From positions 1 to 34,973 of the forward strand of contig VGJY01000022.1 in assembly GCA_016867235.1 (NCBI GenBank): DNA of 34,973 nucleotides, written 5' to 3'. Both the position numbers and the translations under genes were made by a program. Of the stretch, positions 322 to 6,432 are shown one piece after another (positions within the stretch are counted from its first letter, which is position 1; each line of letters begins with the position of its first letter). This DNA comes from Candidatus Tanganyikabacteria bacterium. GTDB taxonomy: Bacteria > Cyanobacteriota > Sericytochromatia > S15B-MN24 > VGJW01. The notes beneath the pieces are model-generated. The model had not been told where the DNA came from. It made no database searches and saw only the letters and a list, made by a program, of their open reading frames with translations.

Positions 322-1182
322 ATGCGGGGCCTGATTGTCACGACCGCTGCCCTCGCGGGCGCATCGAGCCTGGTATGGAGCCTGCCGGCCGGCGCGCAAG
401 TGATGGAGCGGTCGCAGGAAACCATTCGCGTGCCGGTCGCCGAGGTCGCGACGCCCATCGGTCCGACGCGGATGTGGAGTGTCAACTCGGCGGTTACCTT
501 GCCAGAAGGCGTGTCGTTGCTCGGGTTCGACCTGAGACTCGGCGCGACTGGCCTTGCGCCGGTCTTCGCCGGCGCGCCGGGCGTCGCTCTGGGCGTGATC
601 GGCACCGGTCTCAACGTGCGGGCCGACGCCGCGGTGACCGACGGCTTCGAAATCGGAGCCGGGGTCGGCGCCTCGGCGACCGCTCCATGGAGGGGGCGGC
701 TGGATCTGCACGGCAAGTGGAACCTGATGCGGGAAGGCGTCGAAGGCGCGTGGCTGACGCTGGGCACCCTGGCGGGCGGCCAGCTCGAGATGGACGCCAA
801 CGGCGTTCCCAACCTCGGGCTCCAGGTCGGCATGCCGATCACCAAGGTGTTCCCGTTCACCAACATCCAGTACGCGGCTTTCACCATCCAGCCAAACTGG
901 AACCTCGGTCTGGCCGGATCCGCGCCCGGCTTGGCGGGAATCGGCGGGTTCAACTTCCTCGGCCTCGGCGTGGGGCTGGACCTGGCGATGACCGAGCGCA
1001 CCCACTTCCTGGCGGACACCAATTTCGGCCTCAAGGTCGGAGGGGTGACGACCGATTCGGCGCTCGGCCTGCGGTATGCGTTCAACCGCAACGTGGTGGG
1101 GTCCATCTACCTCGGCGTCGGAGCCGCGGGGCCCGGAGCGGGCATCTCCGGGCTGGGGATCGGCGGTACCTGGCGCATGTAA
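322..1182 (+). CDS. Secreted or outer-membrane beta-barrel-like protein
   Basis: This is a 286-residue protein of unrecognised family. The ATG at 322 was chosen because a strong purine-rich ribosome site (GGAGGAGGGGAG) precedes it and it gives a clean signal peptide (about residues 1-25, ending in AGAQ). An in-frame start at 265 would put 19 extra residues before that signal. The mature part alternates short hydrophobic and Gly-rich strands (for example LGFDLRLGATG, FNFLGLGVGLDLAM), as in small outer-membrane barrels. The last residues (GGTWRM) do not form the classic aromatic C-terminal beta-signal. It lies just upstream of the Wzc-like gene but has its own likely promoter. A soluble periplasmic beta-protein is the alternative. 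Confidence 0.55.
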   Translation: MRGLIVTTAALAGASSLVWSLPAGAQVMERSQETIRVPVAEVATPIGPTRMWSVNSAVTLPEGVSLLGFDLRLGATGLAPVFAGAPGVALGVIGTGLNVRADAAVTDGFEIGAGVGASATAPWRGRLDLHGKWNLMREGVEGAWLTLGTLAGGQLEMDANGVPNLGLQVGMPITKVFPFTNIQYAAFTIQPNWNLGLAGSAPGLAGIGGFNFLGLGVGLDLAMTERTHFLADTNFGLKVGGVTTDSALGLRYAFNRNVVGSIYLGVGAAGPGAGISGLGIGGTWRM

Positions 1183-1225: not shown

Positions 1226-2428
1226 ATGCGCCCCCCGATCTTCGTGAAAACGCTCCGCGCATTCCTGCTCGCCACGCTGGCGCTCTGGGCGCCCGTCGCC
1301 TTGGCCGAGGGCATGAGCCATGCGGCCCTGACCGCCGAGTACGGCCCGACGGCGCCCGAGCGCATCGTCGCCGACCTGCAGGCCCGCGCCCGGAGCGACG
1401 TGCCGGCCCTGTTCCTGGGTGCCCTGCCCAAGGACCTGGAGGGGCGTGCATGGCAGATCGCCGTCGAGACGGCATCCGGGGGCATCTCCGTCCAGGTCGA
1501 GGTGGAGGGTTCGCCGGCCGACGCCAAGGCCGCGGCCCAGGCACTCATCGTGCCCCTCGAGGACCTCGTGCACGAGGTGGGCGGTGACTACTCGGCGCAG
1601 GTGACGCTCGAGTCTTCGGGGTTCGCGCTGCCCGGCCTGGCGCTGCCCAAGCTCGCCCTGCCGGAGTTGCCCAAGGTGCCGGGCATTCCGGGCGGTGCCG
1701 GCATGGCGGCGGTCGGGGCGATCGTCGCCGGCGCCGGCGCGCTCCTGGTGTTCTTCCTCATCCGGCGCGGGCTACGGGGCCCCAAGCGGCTCCCCCTCCC
1801 CACGCTGTGGGGGGCGCCGGTGCTGGGCCTGCTGCCCGAGAGTCTGGCACGGGTGGGCAAGCTCTACCACCTCCAGTCCAAGCCCTGCCAGGCGATGGGC
1901 TACTTCTTCATGCAGCAGGCGCCCAGCATCCGCAAGGTCGCCGTCACGGCGCCCACGCCCGAAGCGGGCGGCACCGTCGCGGTCACGCTGGGCCAGTTCC
2001 TGGTTCGCGAAGGCCAGAAGGTGCTGCTGGTGGACCTGTCGGGCGAGACCAACGTCGTGCCCGCCATCTTCGCGCGTTTCGGCGCTCCGCCCGGGGAAGC
2101 GTGCGACGGGGCCGCGGCGGGCACCGGCATCCAGGATCTCGACCTGATGACCATGTCCCGCGCTGACGCCGCGCTGCCCGAGTTGCCGGCCGAGATAGAG
2201 CACGGCTACGACCGCATCATCTACGTCATCCCGCCGGGCCAGCGCCCGCGCGGCGTCCCGTGCGTGGACGTGGTCCTCAAGCCGTCGCTCAAGGCGGCGC
2301 TCGCCGCGGCGTTCGGCGCGCCGCGCGTGGGCTGGGTGTTCTTCGGGGACGGCGTACCCATGCGCGTCAGCGACCGGTACTACACCCGCTACTACTACGA
2401 GAAGCTGCACGAAGTCTCCGCCACGTGA
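1226..2428 (+). CDS. Wzc/BY-kinase-like membrane protein with degenerate nucleotide site
   Basis: The 400-residue protein has the layout of a polysaccharide co-polymerase/tyrosine autokinase. An N-terminal signal or membrane segment (about 8-27) is followed by a short exported domain, a Pro-rich stretch (135-155), a membrane helix (about 160-179), the linker VLGLLPES (199-206) and a cytosolic P-loop-type domain. Known BY-kinases use Walker A PGEGKST, Walker A' and Walker B ending DTPP. Here Walker A reads PEAGGT (245-250) with no lysine. Walker A' keeps VLLVD (266-270), and Walker B reads IIYVIPP (331-337) with its Asp gone. The C-terminus still has a tyrosine cluster (Tyr385, 386, 389, 390, 391). 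I infer a catalytically dead or divergent homologue, perhaps a scaffold or a substrate of another kinase. The stop overlaps the DUF898 start. Confidence 0.7.
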   Translation: MRPPIFVKTLRAFLLATLALWAPVALAEGMSHAALTAEYGPTAPERIVADLQARARSDVPALFLGALPKDLEGRAWQIAVETASGGISVQVEVEGSPADAKAAAQALIVPLEDLVHEVGGDYSAQVTLESSGFALPGLALPKLALPELPKVPGIPGGAGMAAVGAIVAGAGALLVFFLIRRGLRGPKRLPLPTLWGAPVLGLLPESLARVGKLYHLQSKPCQAMGYFFMQQAPSIRKVAVTAPTPEAGGTVAVTLGQFLVREGQKVLLVDLSGETNVVPAIFARFGAPPGEACDGAAAGTGIQDLDLMTMSRADAALPELPAEIEHGYDRIIYVIPPGQRPRGVPCVDVVLKPSLKAALAAAFGAPRVGWVFFGDGVPMRVSDRYYTRYYYEKLHEVSAT

Positions 2429-3381
2429 CGCCCGAGCGCCGGTTCGCCTTCCACGGCCGCGGCGGCGCGGTGTTCGGCATCTACGCGGTGACCATTCTCC
2501 TCTCGATCCTGACGCTCGGCATCTACTACCCCTGGGGCAAGGTCCGGCTCAAGCGCTACTTCTACTCGCAGACCGAGTTCGAGGGCGATCGCTTCTCCTA
2601 CCACGGCACGGGTCGCGAGCTGCTGGTCGGCTGGCTCAAGGTGCTCCTGGCGCTGGGCGTGCTGTACGGCGGCATCATGGCGGCCGCGTTCGCCCTGCCG
2701 GACGACGATCCCCTGCAGATCCTGGTGTCCATCCTGCTCGGCCTGGCCGGCTGGGCCCTGGTCCCCGTGGCGCTGGTCGGCTCGCAGCGGTACCGGCTCA
2801 GTCGCAGCTCCTGGCGTGGCATCCGCTTCTCGTTTCGCGGGACCATCCGCGAGTTCTTCCCGATCTTCGCCAGGGGCTCGCTCCTCACGGCCCTGACGCT
2901 GGGCCTGTACACGCCCTTCTTCCAGAACGACCTGCGGCGCTACCAGGTGGGCCACTCGTTCTTCGGCACGACCGCCCTCTCTTACGACGGCGAGGGGCGC
3001 AAGCTGTTTCCCAAGTTCCTGGCGGCAATTGTCCTCACGCCGCTCACGCTCGGGCTGTACTGGTTCTGGTACCAGGCGGCGCGCGACCGCTTCTTCTGGT
3101 CGCACACGTGCGTGGCGGGGGCGAGGCTGCGCTACGACGTGAAAGGCGGCGACCTGCTCCTCATCGCGCTGGGGAGCGCGCTGGCCCTGGGGTTCACGCT
3201 CGGCCTCGCCTACCCCTGGGTGCGCGCTGCCGCCATGCGGTTCAAGCTGGAGCACCTGGTCGTGGCGGGGGACCTGGATCTCGACGCCGTGGTGCAGGAC
3301 GCTCGCGACGCTTCTAGCGCCGGCGAGGGACTGGCCGACTTCGTGGCCGAGTCCCTCTTCGACATCGAACTGGGCCTGTGA
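2425..3381 (+). CDS. DUF898 (YjgN-like) multi-pass membrane protein
   Basis: This 318-residue inner-membrane protein starts at a GTG that overlaps the previous stop (GTGA at 2425-2428), so the two genes are likely translationally coupled. It begins with the DUF898 signature: a hydrophobic helix, TLGIYYPWGKVR, then an aromatic-rich loop. The TLG-x-Y block followed by a basic/aromatic segment recurs at about residues 33, 160, 215 and, more loosely, 258, so the protein looks internally repeated. The biochemical role of DUF898 is not known. In other genomes it is often found next to an M48 peptidase, as it is here, which suggests a shared envelope quality-control role. The soluble acidic tail (about 280-318) is unusual. 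Confidence 0.8.
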   Translation: MTPERRFAFHGRGGAVFGIYAVTILLSILTLGIYYPWGKVRLKRYFYSQTEFEGDRFSYHGTGRELLVGWLKVLLALGVLYGGIMAAAFALPDDDPLQILVSILLGLAGWALVPVALVGSQRYRLSRSSWRGIRFSFRGTIREFFPIFARGSLLTALTLGLYTPFFQNDLRRYQVGHSFFGTTALSYDGEGRKLFPKFLAAIVLTPLTLGLYWFWYQAARDRFFWSHTCVAGARLRYDVKGGDLLLIALGSALALGFTLGLAYPWVRAAAMRFKLEHLVVAGDLDLDAVVQDARDASSAGEGLADFVAESLFDIELGL

Positions 3382-3469
3382 TCTTTCAGGCGGCGCACAG
3401 GCTCTGATGAGTTCTCCACCGGCTGCGCCGACACCGCCGAACGAAACGGCAGTCAGATTCGATGCGCCC

Positions 3470-3523
3470 GGGACCGCCGGCATCTTGCCGGCCTCATGGG
3501 GCCGGCGGGACGCCGGCGGTCCC
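3470..3523. repeat. 54-base palindromic dispersed repeat (full copy)
   Basis: Two 23-base arms (3470-3492 and 3501-3523) are inverted copies matching at 20 of 23 positions, and even the 8-base centre is nearly self-complementary. Each arm contains GCCGGC-n5-GCCGGC, so nested hairpins are possible. It lies alone between the DUF898 and M48 genes. A single arm, again matching at 20 of 23 bases, occurs at 26783-26805 inside a coding region. This is what a REP/MITE-like mobile palindrome looks like, although its GC-rich hairpin could also end or attenuate transcription. Confidence 0.6.
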
Positions 3524-3558
3524 AGGTGCCACGATCCTGACAACCCAAGGAGTTTCCT

Positions 3559-4665
3559 TTGAGCGATCTGCCGCGCCGGCGCCAGCCGGGAGCCGTCTGG
3601 GAAGGGCACTACTACGACGGCGCGTCGCCGCACCGCCACGACGTCCGGGTCGAGGTCACCGAAGCGGGCCTGGTCGTACAGTTCGCGGATGGCCAGGAAA
3701 CGCTCTGGCACTACGACGACCTGCTGCAGACGCAGGGCTTCCACGCCGGTGAGGTGGTCCGGTTCGAGCACGGGCCCGAATCGCTCGCCGTGCCCGACGC
3801 CGGCATCCTGCGGGCGATCCGGCTGCTCGCCGCCGGTTACGCGCAGCGGTTCCACGATCCCCGCTCCCGCTCCCTCGAGTGGCCCATCTTCATCGGCGCG
3901 GCGGTCGCGGCGGCGGGATTGCTGGTCGCCGGCTGGGTCTGGGGCCTGCCCGCGGCGACGGGCTTTGCCGCCGACCGCATCCCGGTGGCCTGGGAAGAAG
4001 AACTCGGGCGCTCGGTCACCGAGAATCTGGCGCCCCGGGACAAGCGCTGCGGGGATCCGGCCCGCCTGGCCGCGATCGAGGGGATGGTGGCCAGGCTCGT
4101 GGGCGACGGCTCGCGCTACCGCTACAAGGTGGCCGTGGCCAGGGAAGACGTGGTGAACGCGTTTGCCGCCCCGGGCGGCCACGTCGTCGTGTTCTCGGGC
4201 CTCCTGGAGCGGACGCGCCGGCCCGAGGAACTCGCCGGCGTGCTCGCCCACGAAATAGAGCACGTCGAACAGCGCCATGCCACGCGGGCCTTGCTGCGTG
4301 ACCTGTCGCTGCGAGCCGTCATCGGCCTGATCGCCGGCGACGCCGGGGCGCTCCAGGCGGCCATCTCCGCGGCCGGCACGCTGGCCGGCCTGCAGTACCG
4401 GCGCCACGACGAGGAGGCCGCCGACGTGGCGGGGATGAAGCGCATGCAGCGGATAAAGGCCGATCCGCAGGGCATGGTGTCGTTCTTCGAGATCCTGGAC
4501 AAGGAGAATCCCGATCTGGCGGGCCCCCTCGCCTACCTGTCCACGCACCCCCGCACGGGCGATCGCATCGCGCGGCTGCGGAACATGGCCGCGGAGGCCG
4601 CGTACCGCCCGGAGCCGTTGCTACCCGGGCGAGCCTGGGACGAAGTCAAGCGCCTCTGCCGCTGA
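3559..4665 (+). CDS. M48 family membrane metallopeptidase
   Basis: This 368-residue protein is a zinc endopeptidase related to HtpX/BepA/Oma1. The zinc motif is HEIEH (His231, Glu232, His235), with the third ligand in EEAAD (about Glu285). An N-terminal soluble domain (1-105) resembles the small domain found before M48 peptidases that accompany DUF898. It is followed by one membrane helix (about 108-130) and the protease domain outside it. The start is TTG at 3559, supported by AAGGAG seven bases upstream. The final 45 bases overlap the convergent NlpC/P60 gene. Such proteases clip misfolded or surplus membrane and outer-membrane proteins. The substrate here is unknown, but the neighbours (DUF898, Wzc-like protein) are candidates. 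Confidence 0.85.
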   Translation: MSDLPRRRQPGAVWEGHYYDGASPHRHDVRVEVTEAGLVVQFADGQETLWHYDDLLQTQGFHAGEVVRFEHGPESLAVPDAGILRAIRLLAAGYAQRFHDPRSRSLEWPIFIGAAVAAAGLLVAGWVWGLPAATGFAADRIPVAWEEELGRSVTENLAPRDKRCGDPARLAAIEGMVARLVGDGSRYRYKVAVAREDVVNAFAAPGGHVVVFSGLLERTRRPEELAGVLAHEIEHVEQRHATRALLRDLSLRAVIGLIAGDAGALQAAISAAGTLAGLQYRRHDEEAADVAGMKRMQRIKADPQGMVSFFEILDKENPDLAGPLAYLSTHPRTGDRIARLRNMAAEAAYRPEPLLPGRAWDEVKRLCR

Positions 4666-6432
4666 GGCCTGCCGGCTGGCCCCCAGGACGCGGCCACCGC
4701 CCAGGAAGCGCTTGGCGAGCGCCGACGCGTAGTGCTGGGCGCCGGGGATCAAGGCGTTGACCGTGACGCAACCGGCCGGAGCCGACGCGTGGATGAACTC
4801 GCCGCGGCCGAGGAACAGGCCCACGTGGCTCTTGAAGAAGACCAGATCGCCGGGCGCCAGATCCTTGACCTGAGTGACAGGGCCATGTGCCTGCCCCAGA
4901 GCCAGTTGCTGGTCCGAGTCCCTGGGCAACTGGATGCCGGCCATCTGGAACACGAGCTGGGTGAAGCCGCTGCAATCCAGGCCCCAGCCCGAGGTCCCGC
5001 CCCAGAGGTAGGGCACGCCGAGGAACGAGTGGGCCATCCGGATCAGGAGCTCCGGCGTCGGCTCGGAGAGGCCGGCGCGAAGGGGATTCGAGCCGTCGTC
5101 GGCCGGGACGTGCCGGCAGGCGGCTGCCGGCAGCAGGACCTCCTCGCGGCCGGGCGTGCGGCCCAGCAGATCGTCCCTCCTGCGGCCCACGAAGGCCAGC
5201 CGCGTGCCCGCCGACAGCGTCACCGAGCCGTGGGTAAGGCGTGGCGCCGTGACGAGGGGGCTGGTGATCAGGACCTGCTCCCGGGTGCGCCAGCGTTCGG
5301 CGTCGCGATCGGTCGCCGGCTGGAGGTTGGTGCTGCGGGCCCACGCGATCATCCCGTCGGGCGCCCGCACCTGCCACCACTCCTCCCCGGCTTCGAGCAC
5401 GTCGAGCAACGTGCCCATGACGACCTGGCTCATCATCTCGAACGCGTGGCCCGGGCCGCGCCGCAGGTGGATGACCGGGGCGAGGGCGATGGCTCGCGGC
5501 GGCGTGGCTCCCAGACGCTTGACCTGGTCCACCACGGGCGCCTCCGAAGATTCGCGGCAAGCCGTCACCACCTCGGGCCATTCCGGTACCGACGCGCGGC
5601 CTACGAGCTCCAGCTTGCCATCGCGCCAGACGGGCTTGACGTCCCAGGCCACCGTCCGGGCATCGGGCGCCAGCCGGGTGCGCTCGGCTTCCAGGACCGA
5701 CTGCACGCGCCCCAGGTTCTCGTGGGCGGCCCGGTAGTAGGAGTCGACCGTGGCGACGACCTTTGCCAGGGCGGCCTCGCCGATGCGCCCCTCGGTGAGG
5801 ATCGCCAGGAGGTAGCCCCCGGGGCCCTGATTGACGAAGACCAGGTGCCGGAAGCCCTCCCCCACGCCGCGCAGGTGCGCGGGATCGGCGGCAGCGGCCG
5901 AGAGCTTCCGCAGCGCGGCCGGCACCCGCGCGAGACGCATGAACGACAGCGCCTCCTGGCGCGCGCCTGGCGGCAGGTCGTCGCCGTGCACCAGGCGCGC
6001 GAGCAGGCCGGCGATCTCGTGGGGCGTGGTGACGTGGAGCGTGGCGTCGCTTGGCGGCCCGTCGAGCAGGGTCCGGGCCATGCCCCACTCCGTGAGGATG
6101 CGGTTGAGATCGTCGAGCGAGACGTGGTCGAGCAACAGGCCCGGCGCAAGCCGGTCCTCGCCCTGGAGCGTCCGCCGGATGAGGTCTCGCAACGTGACTT
6201 CCCCGCCCTCCCCGAGAGCGACGCGCCTGGAGAGGGCGATCTGGCCGTCCGCCGCCGCCTTGTAGGTCGCCAGCGCCAGCGGCAGGCGCACGAGATCGCC
6301 CGCCGGGAAGCGCCGATCGTTGTGGGTCCAGGCTTCGCCCGTGGCCAGGTGCCGGAACGCCAGGCCCACCTCGGCCCGTGGTGCCCGCAGCACCGGGGCC
6401 AGTCTCATCGCGAGGTGCAGGGGAAAATGCAC
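4621..6432 (-). CDS. Pseudo-beta-lactamase / SH3 / NlpC-P60 fusion
   Basis: The 603-residue protein has three parts. Residues about 20-240 follow the class A beta-lactamase/serine-hydrolase pattern, but the catalytic SxxK is DxxR (Asp46, Arg49 within FPAGDLVRLP), and the SDN and KTG motifs are not recognisable. Residues about 300-450 look like SH3b-type domains (for example GEEWWQVRAPDG). The C-terminal NlpC/P60 domain has Cys487 in LDCSGF, His536 in SHVG and His548 in FIHAS, so it should be an active cell-wall peptide endopeptidase like YkfC. No signal peptide is seen. GTG at 6432 is the longest start and ATG at 6408 is an alternative. It is divergent from an M19 dipeptidase, which fits recycling of cell-wall peptides in the cytoplasm. 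Confidence 0.8.
   Translation of the reverse strand: MHFPLHLAMRLAPVLRAPRAEVGLAFRHLATGEAWTHNDRRFPAGDLVRLPLALATYKAAADGQIALSRRVALGEGGEVTLRDLIRRTLQGEDRLAPGLLLDHVSLDDLNRILTEWGMARTLLDGPPSDATLHVTTPHEIAGLLARLVHGDDLPPGARQEALSFMRLARVPAALRKLSAAAADPAHLRGVGEGFRHLVFVNQGPGGYLLAILTEGRIGEAALAKVVATVDSYYRAAHENLGRVQSVLEAERTRLAPDARTVAWDVKPVWRDGKLELVGRASVPEWPEVVTACRESSEAPVVDQVKRLGATPPRAIALAPVIHLRRGPGHAFEMMSQVVMGTLLDVLEAGEEWWQVRAPDGMIAWARSTNLQPATDRDAERWRTREQVLITSPLVTAPRLTHGSVTLSAGTRLAFVGRRRDDLLGRTPGREEVLLPAAACRHVPADDGSNPLRAGLSEPTPELLIRMAHSFLGVPYLWGGTSGWGLDCSGFTQLVFQMAGIQLPRDSDQQLALGQAHGPVTQVKDLAPGDLVFFKSHVGLFLGRGEFIHASAPAGCVTVNALIPGAQHYASALAKRFLGGGRVLGASRQASAAEALDFVPGSPG

What the first reader, a model, noticed from the sequence alone, without database searches (positions are those of the whole stretch)
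1226..2428. Wzc-like tyrosine-kinase homologue that lost its nucleotide site but kept its tyrosine cluster
The order exported domain, Pro-rich stretch, membrane helix, VLGLLPES linker and P-loop-type domain matches BY-kinases. The Walker A lysine is absent (PEAGGT), the Walker B Asp is replaced (IIYVIPP), and Walker A' is kept. Five tyrosines remain at the C-terminus (residues 385-391). A pseudokinase that keeps the phospho-acceptor tail could be a passive length regulator or a substrate for another kinase. It is coupled to DUF898, not to polysaccharide genes.
Basis: partly seen in the sequence, partly recalled or inferred. Interest (0 to 1): 0.72.

Follow-up and report, generated by a model that had tools for sequence, protein, structure and literature searches.

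The report
Dead Wzc-like kinase, probable envelope scaffold
A membrane protein found only in one order of non-photosynthetic cyanobacteria descends from the Wzc-type bacterial tyrosine kinases that control surface-sugar production, but it has lost its ATP site in every relative, so it most likely works as a scaffold; similar 'dead kinases' are already known in other bacteria.

Summary
The 400-residue ORF at 1226-2428 has the BY-kinase (Wzc/CapAB) fold: the 46 best Foldseek hits in the PDB are all BY-kinases. Profile searches agree. It lacks the Walker A lysine and Walker B aspartate. Only the first aspartate of Walker A' remains.

These losses are shared by every ortholog that covers the sites (five plus the window; 28-50% identical). 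All come from one order of Sericytochromatia (Cyanobacteriota), so this is a conserved pseudokinase family and not decay in one genome.

(1) The tyrosine cluster is not conserved as a phospho-acceptor tail: counts are 5, 5, 4, 3, 2 and 2, with Y/F swaps. Only Y390 and R388 are invariant, and a helix is predicted there at low confidence. (2) DUF898 is incidental. It is absent from all seven relatives carrying the gene and sits beside M48 in two that lack it. The conserved neighbours are an outer-membrane-barrel-like gene and, nearby, sugar-nucleotide genes (PGI/PMI, GMPP-like, PGM/PMM).

Best reading: a reduced, single-chain BY pseudokinase acting as a phosphorylation-independent envelope scaffold. 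Precedents are EcpK (Myxococcus) and HfsB (Caulobacter). It is a new variant of a known kind.

The parts
1226..2428 (+). BY pseudokinase-like membrane protein, 400 aa (whole ORF)
   Evidence: Intact ORF; relatives in 7 genomes of one order; Foldseek top hits all BY-kinases
1226..1306 (+). signal peptide or first transmembrane helix (residues 1-27, ALA-E motif; cleaved or not is unresolved)
   Evidence: Sequence; helix 5-26 in model; comparable N-terminus in relatives
1307..1621 (+). small periplasmic domain, beta-alpha-beta-beta-alpha-beta (residues 28-132)
   Evidence: AF2 of the domain alone: mean pLDDT 84.7, pTM 0.76; best PDB matches ferredoxin-like, no Wzz/Wzc among the 50 listed
1622..1696 (+). 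proline-rich stretch (residues 133-157)
   Evidence: Sequence; pLDDT <50
1697..1765 (+). transmembrane helix (residues 158-180) followed by RRGLRGPKR, so C-terminal side in the cytoplasm
   Evidence: Model helix; positive-inside inference from sequence
1799..1921 (+). juxtamembrane linker and helix LPLPTLWGAPVLGLLPESLARVGKLYHLQSKPCQAMGYFFMQQA region, the most conserved part
   Evidence: 64-80% identity inside the family against 32-45% for the periplasmic domain; invariant G201, L203, P204, L216, Q217, C221, Q222
1958..1975 (+). degenerate Walker A, PEAGGT (residues 245-250)
   Evidence: Lysine absent in all six sequences covering it
2021..2047 (+). half-kept Walker A', VLLVDLSGE (residues 266-274)
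   Evidence: First Asp (D270) invariant, second Asp and Arg lost
2213..2236 (+). degenerate Walker B, RIIYVIPP (residues 330-337)
   Evidence: Asp position is V334; no Asp in any ortholog
2366..2416 (+). C-terminal aromatic helix with Y385, 386, 389, 390, 391 (residues 381-397)
   Evidence: Helix predicted at pLDDT about 40; R388 and Y390 invariant, other Tyr replaceable
322..1182 (+). conserved upstream partner: signal peptide plus outer-membrane beta-barrel-like protein (286 aa)
   Evidence: Present in 7 of the 8 carrier genomes; next to the gene, or separated from it only by metK, in six; no Pfam match; C-terminal Phe in relatives

Best explanation
The protein is a reduced, single-chain relative of the Wzc-type polysaccharide co-polymerase/BY-kinase (PCP-2a) that has become a pseudokinase. 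It is probably anchored in the inner membrane, with a small ferredoxin-like domain in the periplasm and a P-loop-derived domain in the cytoplasm that cannot bind or use ATP as a BY-kinase does. Shown here: the fold, the family-wide loss of the site, the intact conserved gene, the conserved neighbours, and that the conservation peak is the juxtamembrane loop and helix. Inferred: it acts as a scaffold ring whose assembly depends on partner binding and not on tyrosine phosphorylation, serving export or assembly of an envelope glycan together with the outer-membrane-barrel-like protein encoded just upstream. The aromatic C-terminal helix is inferred to be a structural clamp and not a phospho-tail.
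For: Fold: the top 46 PDB matches are all BY-kinases (Wzc, CapAB, BceF, Etk, VpsO), best E 4.8e-8; the first other P-loop protein, HypB, is rank 48 at 7.7e-4. Sequence: a profile of the family against all PDB chains puts CapAB first (E 0.009, colinear to the tail); hhalign against BY-kinases gives probability 96.6%, E 4.9e-10. Every ortholog covering the sites lacks the Walker A lysine and the Walker B aspartate. The gene has no internal stop in carriers at 28-50% identity. In E. coli Wzc, K540M, the engineered loss of the same lysine, gives a non-phosphorylated octamer (PMC8285477). EcpK and HfsB are BY pseudokinases needed for polysaccharide production; EcpK binds its PCP partner, HfsB stabilises its own, and both have a C-terminal helix instead of a disordered tail (PMC12004946). 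PGI/PMI and a GMPP-like gene lie near the gene in five genomes, PGM/PMM and D-Ala-D-Ala ligase in four. The upstream barrel-like gene co-occurs in 7 of 8 carriers.
Against: No Wzx, Wzy or OPX gene was recognised near the gene; the genome's canonical PCP-2a is on another contig. The periplasmic domain alone does not match Wzz/Wzc in the listed Foldseek hits. The N-terminal hydrophobic segment ends in ALA-E and may be a cleaved signal peptide, which would leave one transmembrane helix instead of the two of PCPs. Oligomerisation and partners are untested. In the window the sugar-nucleotide genes are separated from this gene by an oppositely oriented gene, so they are not one operon. Sericytochromatia has few genomes, so co-occurrence rests on one nested clade.
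Confidence: 0.55

Rival explanations
1. The protein is a BY-kinase-derived membrane adaptor that has left polysaccharide export altogether and now serves cell-wall or outer-membrane upkeep with its neighbours (barrel-like protein, NlpC/P60 hydrolase, M19 dipeptidase, D-Ala-D-Ala ligase).
For: Conserved neighbours include NlpC/P60 in window, G001, G005 and G009, M19 dipeptidase in window, G001 and G009, and the barrel-like gene. The periplasmic domain is not recognisably Wzz. No Wzy/Wzx nearby.
Against: Neighbours are on mixed strands and their order changes; G002 and G003 lack the barrel-like gene or NlpC beside it. PGI/PMI and the GMPP-like gene are conserved in the same place.
Confidence: 0.25
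2. The tyrosine cluster is a phospho-acceptor tail modified in trans by the genome's separate canonical BY-kinase, so catalysis and tail are split between two proteins.
For: Five Tyr in 385-391. The canonical PCP-2a kinase of the same genome has intact Walker motifs (GEGK, VDGD, VDLPP) but only two Tyr near its C-terminus; canonical kinases of five relatives are similar.
Against: Tyr count falls to 3, 2 and 2 in relatives with Phe, Met, Leu or Ser replacements; only Y390 is invariant. The region is predicted helical, though at low confidence. The canonical kinase is not linked to this gene. A low-molecular-weight phosphatase occurs in all ten genomes tested, so it is uninformative.
Confidence: 0.1
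3. The cytoplasmic domain still binds a nucleotide or another small ligand in an unorthodox way and works as a sensor.
For: The Walker A' strand VLxVD is retained in all six sequences and the Rossmann core is modelled well.
Against: Walker A loop, Walker B Asp and second A' Asp are all lost, and these positions vary freely between orthologs. Conservation peaks outside the old site.
Confidence: 0.06
4. The gene is decaying, or the resemblance to BY-kinases is chance.
For: Pfam scores stay below the curated cut-offs (AAA_31 E 0.014).
Against: Orthologs without internal stops in families f1 and f3, and a piece in f2; fold and profile evidence.
Confidence: 0.03

Closest known systems
EcpK of Myxococcus xanthus (BY pseudokinase, PMC12004946)
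   Same: BY-kinase-like Rossmann fold, Walker motifs lost, C-terminal alpha-helix instead of a disordered Tyr tail, losses shared by orthologs
   Different: EcpK is a stand-alone cytoplasmic protein acting on a separate PCP (EpsV) and has no C-terminal tyrosines; ours is fused to a membrane and periplasmic part and has an aromatic C-terminus
HfsB of Caulobacter crescentus (BY pseudokinase partner of HfsA; described in PMC12004946)
   Same: Catalytic residues lost; C-terminal helix modelled against the base of a transmembrane helix
   Different: Stand-alone protein, no Tyr-rich tail, in a holdfast Wzx/Wzy pathway
Wzc of E. coli (PCP-2a, PDB 3LA6, 7NHR, 9R62)
   Same: Fused layout, Pro-rich stretch and TM2, PVLGxxP linker, P-loop domain, Tyr at the C-terminus; best fold match
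   Different: About 720 aa with a large periplasmic domain and an active kinase; ours has about 105 periplasmic residues and no usable nucleotide site
CapA/CapB of Staphylococcus aureus (PCP-2b plus BY-kinase, PDB 4JLV, 4JMP, 3BFV, 2VED)
   Same: Best profile match in the PDB, colinear to the C-terminal tyrosines; small extracytoplasmic part
   Different: Two chains and an active kinase
Canonical PCP-2a kinase of the same genome (G000:C104, locus L008)
   Same: BY-kinase domain in the same organism
   Different: 699 aa, intact GEGK/VDGD/VDLPP, few C-terminal Tyr, among EPS-type genes on another contig

Membership tests
BY-kinase (active bacterial tyrosine kinase) | BY-kinase Rossmann/P-loop fold | tested here: met
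   Foldseek top 46 all BY-kinases; hhalign 96.6%
BY-kinase (active bacterial tyrosine kinase) | Walker A with the nucleotide-binding lysine | tested here: not met
   K position is G in the window and S/A/A/S/T in orthologs
BY-kinase (active bacterial tyrosine kinase) | Walker A' DxDxR | tested here: not met
   Only the first Asp kept: VLLVDLSGE
BY-kinase (active bacterial tyrosine kinase) | Walker B aspartate | tested here: not met
   V334 in IIYVIPP; none in orthologs
BY-kinase (active bacterial tyrosine kinase) | C-terminal Tyr-rich tail conserved in orthologs | tested here: not met
   5, 4, 3, 5, 2, 2 Tyr in G000, G004, G001, G002, G006, G009
BY pseudokinase (EcpK/HfsB kind) | BY-kinase fold with catalytic motifs lost across orthologs | tested here: met
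BY pseudokinase (EcpK/HfsB kind) | C-terminal alpha-helix in place of a disordered tail | tested here: inconclusive
   Helix 381-397 predicted, but pLDDT about 40
BY pseudokinase (EcpK/HfsB kind) | Binds a PCP partner and supports polysaccharide synthesis | not testable with these tools
   Needs experiment
PCP-2a (Wzc) | Cytoplasmic BY-kinase-type domain fused after TM2 | tested here: met
PCP-2a (Wzc) | Two transmembrane helices | tested here: inconclusive
   TM2 clear; first segment may be a cleaved signal peptide
PCP-2a (Wzc) | Wzz-type large periplasmic domain | tested here: not met
   About 105 residues, ferredoxin-like; no Pfam Wzz match and no Wzz/Wzc among listed PDB hits for the domain
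PCP-2a (Wzc) | Encoded with Wzx/Wzy/OPX genes | tested here: not met
   None recognised in the window beside it or in the neighbourhoods of relatives

The most novel reading that the evidence does not exclude
Catalysis and tail have been split within one genome: a canonical BY-kinase with an intact ATP site but few C-terminal tyrosines acts in trans on the aromatic tail of this dead, membrane-anchored homologue, coupling an outer-membrane barrel to sugar-nucleotide supply.
Probability: 0.07. Interest if true: 0.7.

Novelty: new variant of a known kind. Interest (0 to 1): 0.38.

Why it matters
BY pseudokinases have been argued to define a phosphorylation-independent way of running polysaccharide co-polymerases, but the worked examples (EcpK, HfsB) are stand-alone proteins in myxobacteria and Caulobacter. 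A conserved family in which the dead kinase is fused to its own membrane and periplasmic part, in a deep non-photosynthetic lineage of Cyanobacteriota, would extend that idea to a second layout and lineage. It also offers a natural counterpart of the Wzc K540M mutant, which forms a stable non-phosphorylated octamer.

Tried and rejected
Pfam, NCBIfam and single-sequence PDB searches gave nothing above threshold; only profiles and folds reached BY-kinases. A scan of viral contigs found no relative. The genome-contig scan found only the same order, so no named cultured carrier is known here. The weak G005 match looked like a truncated protein but simply runs off the contig end. DUF898 coupling was rejected by its absence from all other carriers and its pairing with M48 in G007/G008. 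Low-molecular-weight phosphatase as evidence for Tyr phosphorylation was rejected because it is found in all ten genomes, carriers or not. Equating the periplasmic domain with Wzz motif 1 was considered because the strand-helix order would allow it, but it was not supported. A first attempt to fetch regions failed on size.

Full report
Observation. The ORF 1226-2428 (+) encodes 400 intact residues. AlphaFold2 on an alignment of the window protein and five relatives gives a compact periplasmic beta-alpha-beta-beta-alpha-beta unit (30-130), a disordered Pro-rich stretch, a membrane helix (158-180), a Rossmann-type cytoplasmic domain (199-373) and a C-terminal helix (381-397, pLDDT about 40). The whole-chain confidence is moderate (mean pLDDT 68, pTM 0.46), but both folded domains are mostly at 60-91.

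Is it a BY-kinase homologue? Single-sequence searches are silent or below cut-off. A seven-sequence profile against all PDB chains puts CapAB chains first at E 0.009, with colinear alignment from the P-loop region to the C-terminal tyrosines. Profile-profile comparison with four full-length BY-kinases gives 96.6% probability and E 4.9e-10, covering TM2 to the tail. Three of those four were found with the same profile, so this is not fully independent. Foldseek against the PDB is independent of that choice: the 46 best matches are all BY-kinases (E 4.8e-8 to 3.3e-4), and the first other P-loop protein is HypB at rank 48. I regard the homology as established.

Is the site really dead? The lysine position is G248 here and S, A, A, S or T in the five orthologs that cover it. 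The Walker B Asp is absent in all six. Of Walker A' only the first Asp survives. Orthologs are 28-50% identical, come from two families of one order (plus a third family with a piece cut by the contig end), and contain no internal stops. This is a maintained family with a common loss, not decay of one gene.

The tyrosine tail. Five Tyr lie in 385-391 (shuffle rate 5e-5). In relatives the count is 5, 4, 3, 2 and 2, Phe replaces Tyr at several places, and only Y390 and R388 are invariant. The region is predicted as a helix, as reported for EcpK and HfsB, where it is not a phospho-tail (PMC12004946). I read it as an aromatic helix kept for packing; phosphorylation is possible but not favoured.

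Where is the conservation? Identity to the window protein is 64-80% over residues 190-234 inside the family (37-42% in the two f3 genomes), against 32-45% in the periplasmic domain and 40-48% at the old Walker A. The juxtamembrane loop and helix are therefore the likely working surface. In BY-kinases the equivalent region lies between TM2 and the kinase core.

Neighbourhood. In the order, the gene follows an outer-membrane-barrel-like gene directly (G000, G001, G004) or with metK in between (G005, G006, G009). Near it lie NlpC/P60 (window, G001, G005, G009), M19 dipeptidase (window, G001, G009), bifunctional phosphoglucose/phosphomannose isomerase (window, G001, G002, G006, G009), a mannose-1-phosphate guanylyltransferase-like gene (the same five plus G005), PGM/PMM and D-Ala-D-Ala ligase (window, G001, G002, G006). 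The GMPP and PGM assignments are by best NCBIfam or Pfam match below equivalog cut-offs. DUF898 and M48 are missing from the other carriers and are paired with each other in G007 and G008, which lack this gene. They are best seen as a module that landed here.

How it probably works. In Wzc the K540M mutant cannot phosphorylate itself and forms an octamer, held partly by the C-terminal tail reaching into the neighbour (PMC8285477). A natural protein with the same lysine gone should likewise not cycle by phosphorylation. EcpK and HfsB show that BY pseudokinases can support polysaccharide synthesis through binding (PMC12004946). I therefore infer a scaffold, probably oligomeric, in an envelope glycan process, with the upstream barrel-like protein as the first candidate partner. 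Steps shown: fold, loss of site, conservation, neighbours. Steps inferred: oligomer, partner, glycan role.

Membership and novelty. It meets the sequence and fold criteria of a BY pseudokinase. It fails those of an active BY-kinase, and it fails the periplasmic-domain and gene-context criteria of a PCP-2a: the periplasmic domain alone matches ferredoxin-like folds weakly and no Wzz/Wzc in the 50 listed hits. PMC12004946 already mentions non-canonical PCP-2a proteins lacking catalytic residues, so the general idea is known. The fused, much reduced layout restricted to S15B-MN24-order Sericytochromatia is the new part. The scan of 84,980 species found relatives only there, though that scan depends on one short conserved peptide.

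Noticed in passing
window 4621-6432 (-): Fusion of a class A beta-lactamase-like domain, an SH3b domain and NlpC/P60. The lactamase SxxK motif appears replaced (FPAGDLVRLP here, FAAGDLIRLP in G001), so this neighbour also seems to carry a dead enzyme domain.
   Followed up: partly
window 2425-4665 (+): DUF898 (YjgN-like) and an M48 metallopeptidase with an N-terminal DUF7092 domain sit side by side here and in G007 (L035) and G008 (L036), which suggests a mobile or co-functioning DUF898-M48 pair.
   Followed up: partly
L008 / L015 (G000:C104:2492-4588, -) and L050-L054: Canonical PCP-2a kinases of this order have intact Walker motifs but only one or two tyrosines near the C-terminus, so they lack the usual Tyr-rich tail.
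   Followed up: partly
window 322-1182 (+): Outer-membrane-barrel-like protein without any Pfam or NCBIfam match, conserved in seven genomes of the order; second copies occur in G005, G006 and G009.
   Followed up: partly
L029:642-2633: In G003 the gene has different neighbours: a DUF1538 membrane protein and a 370-residue protein of unassigned family lie upstream, and the barrel-like gene is on another contig.
   Followed up: no
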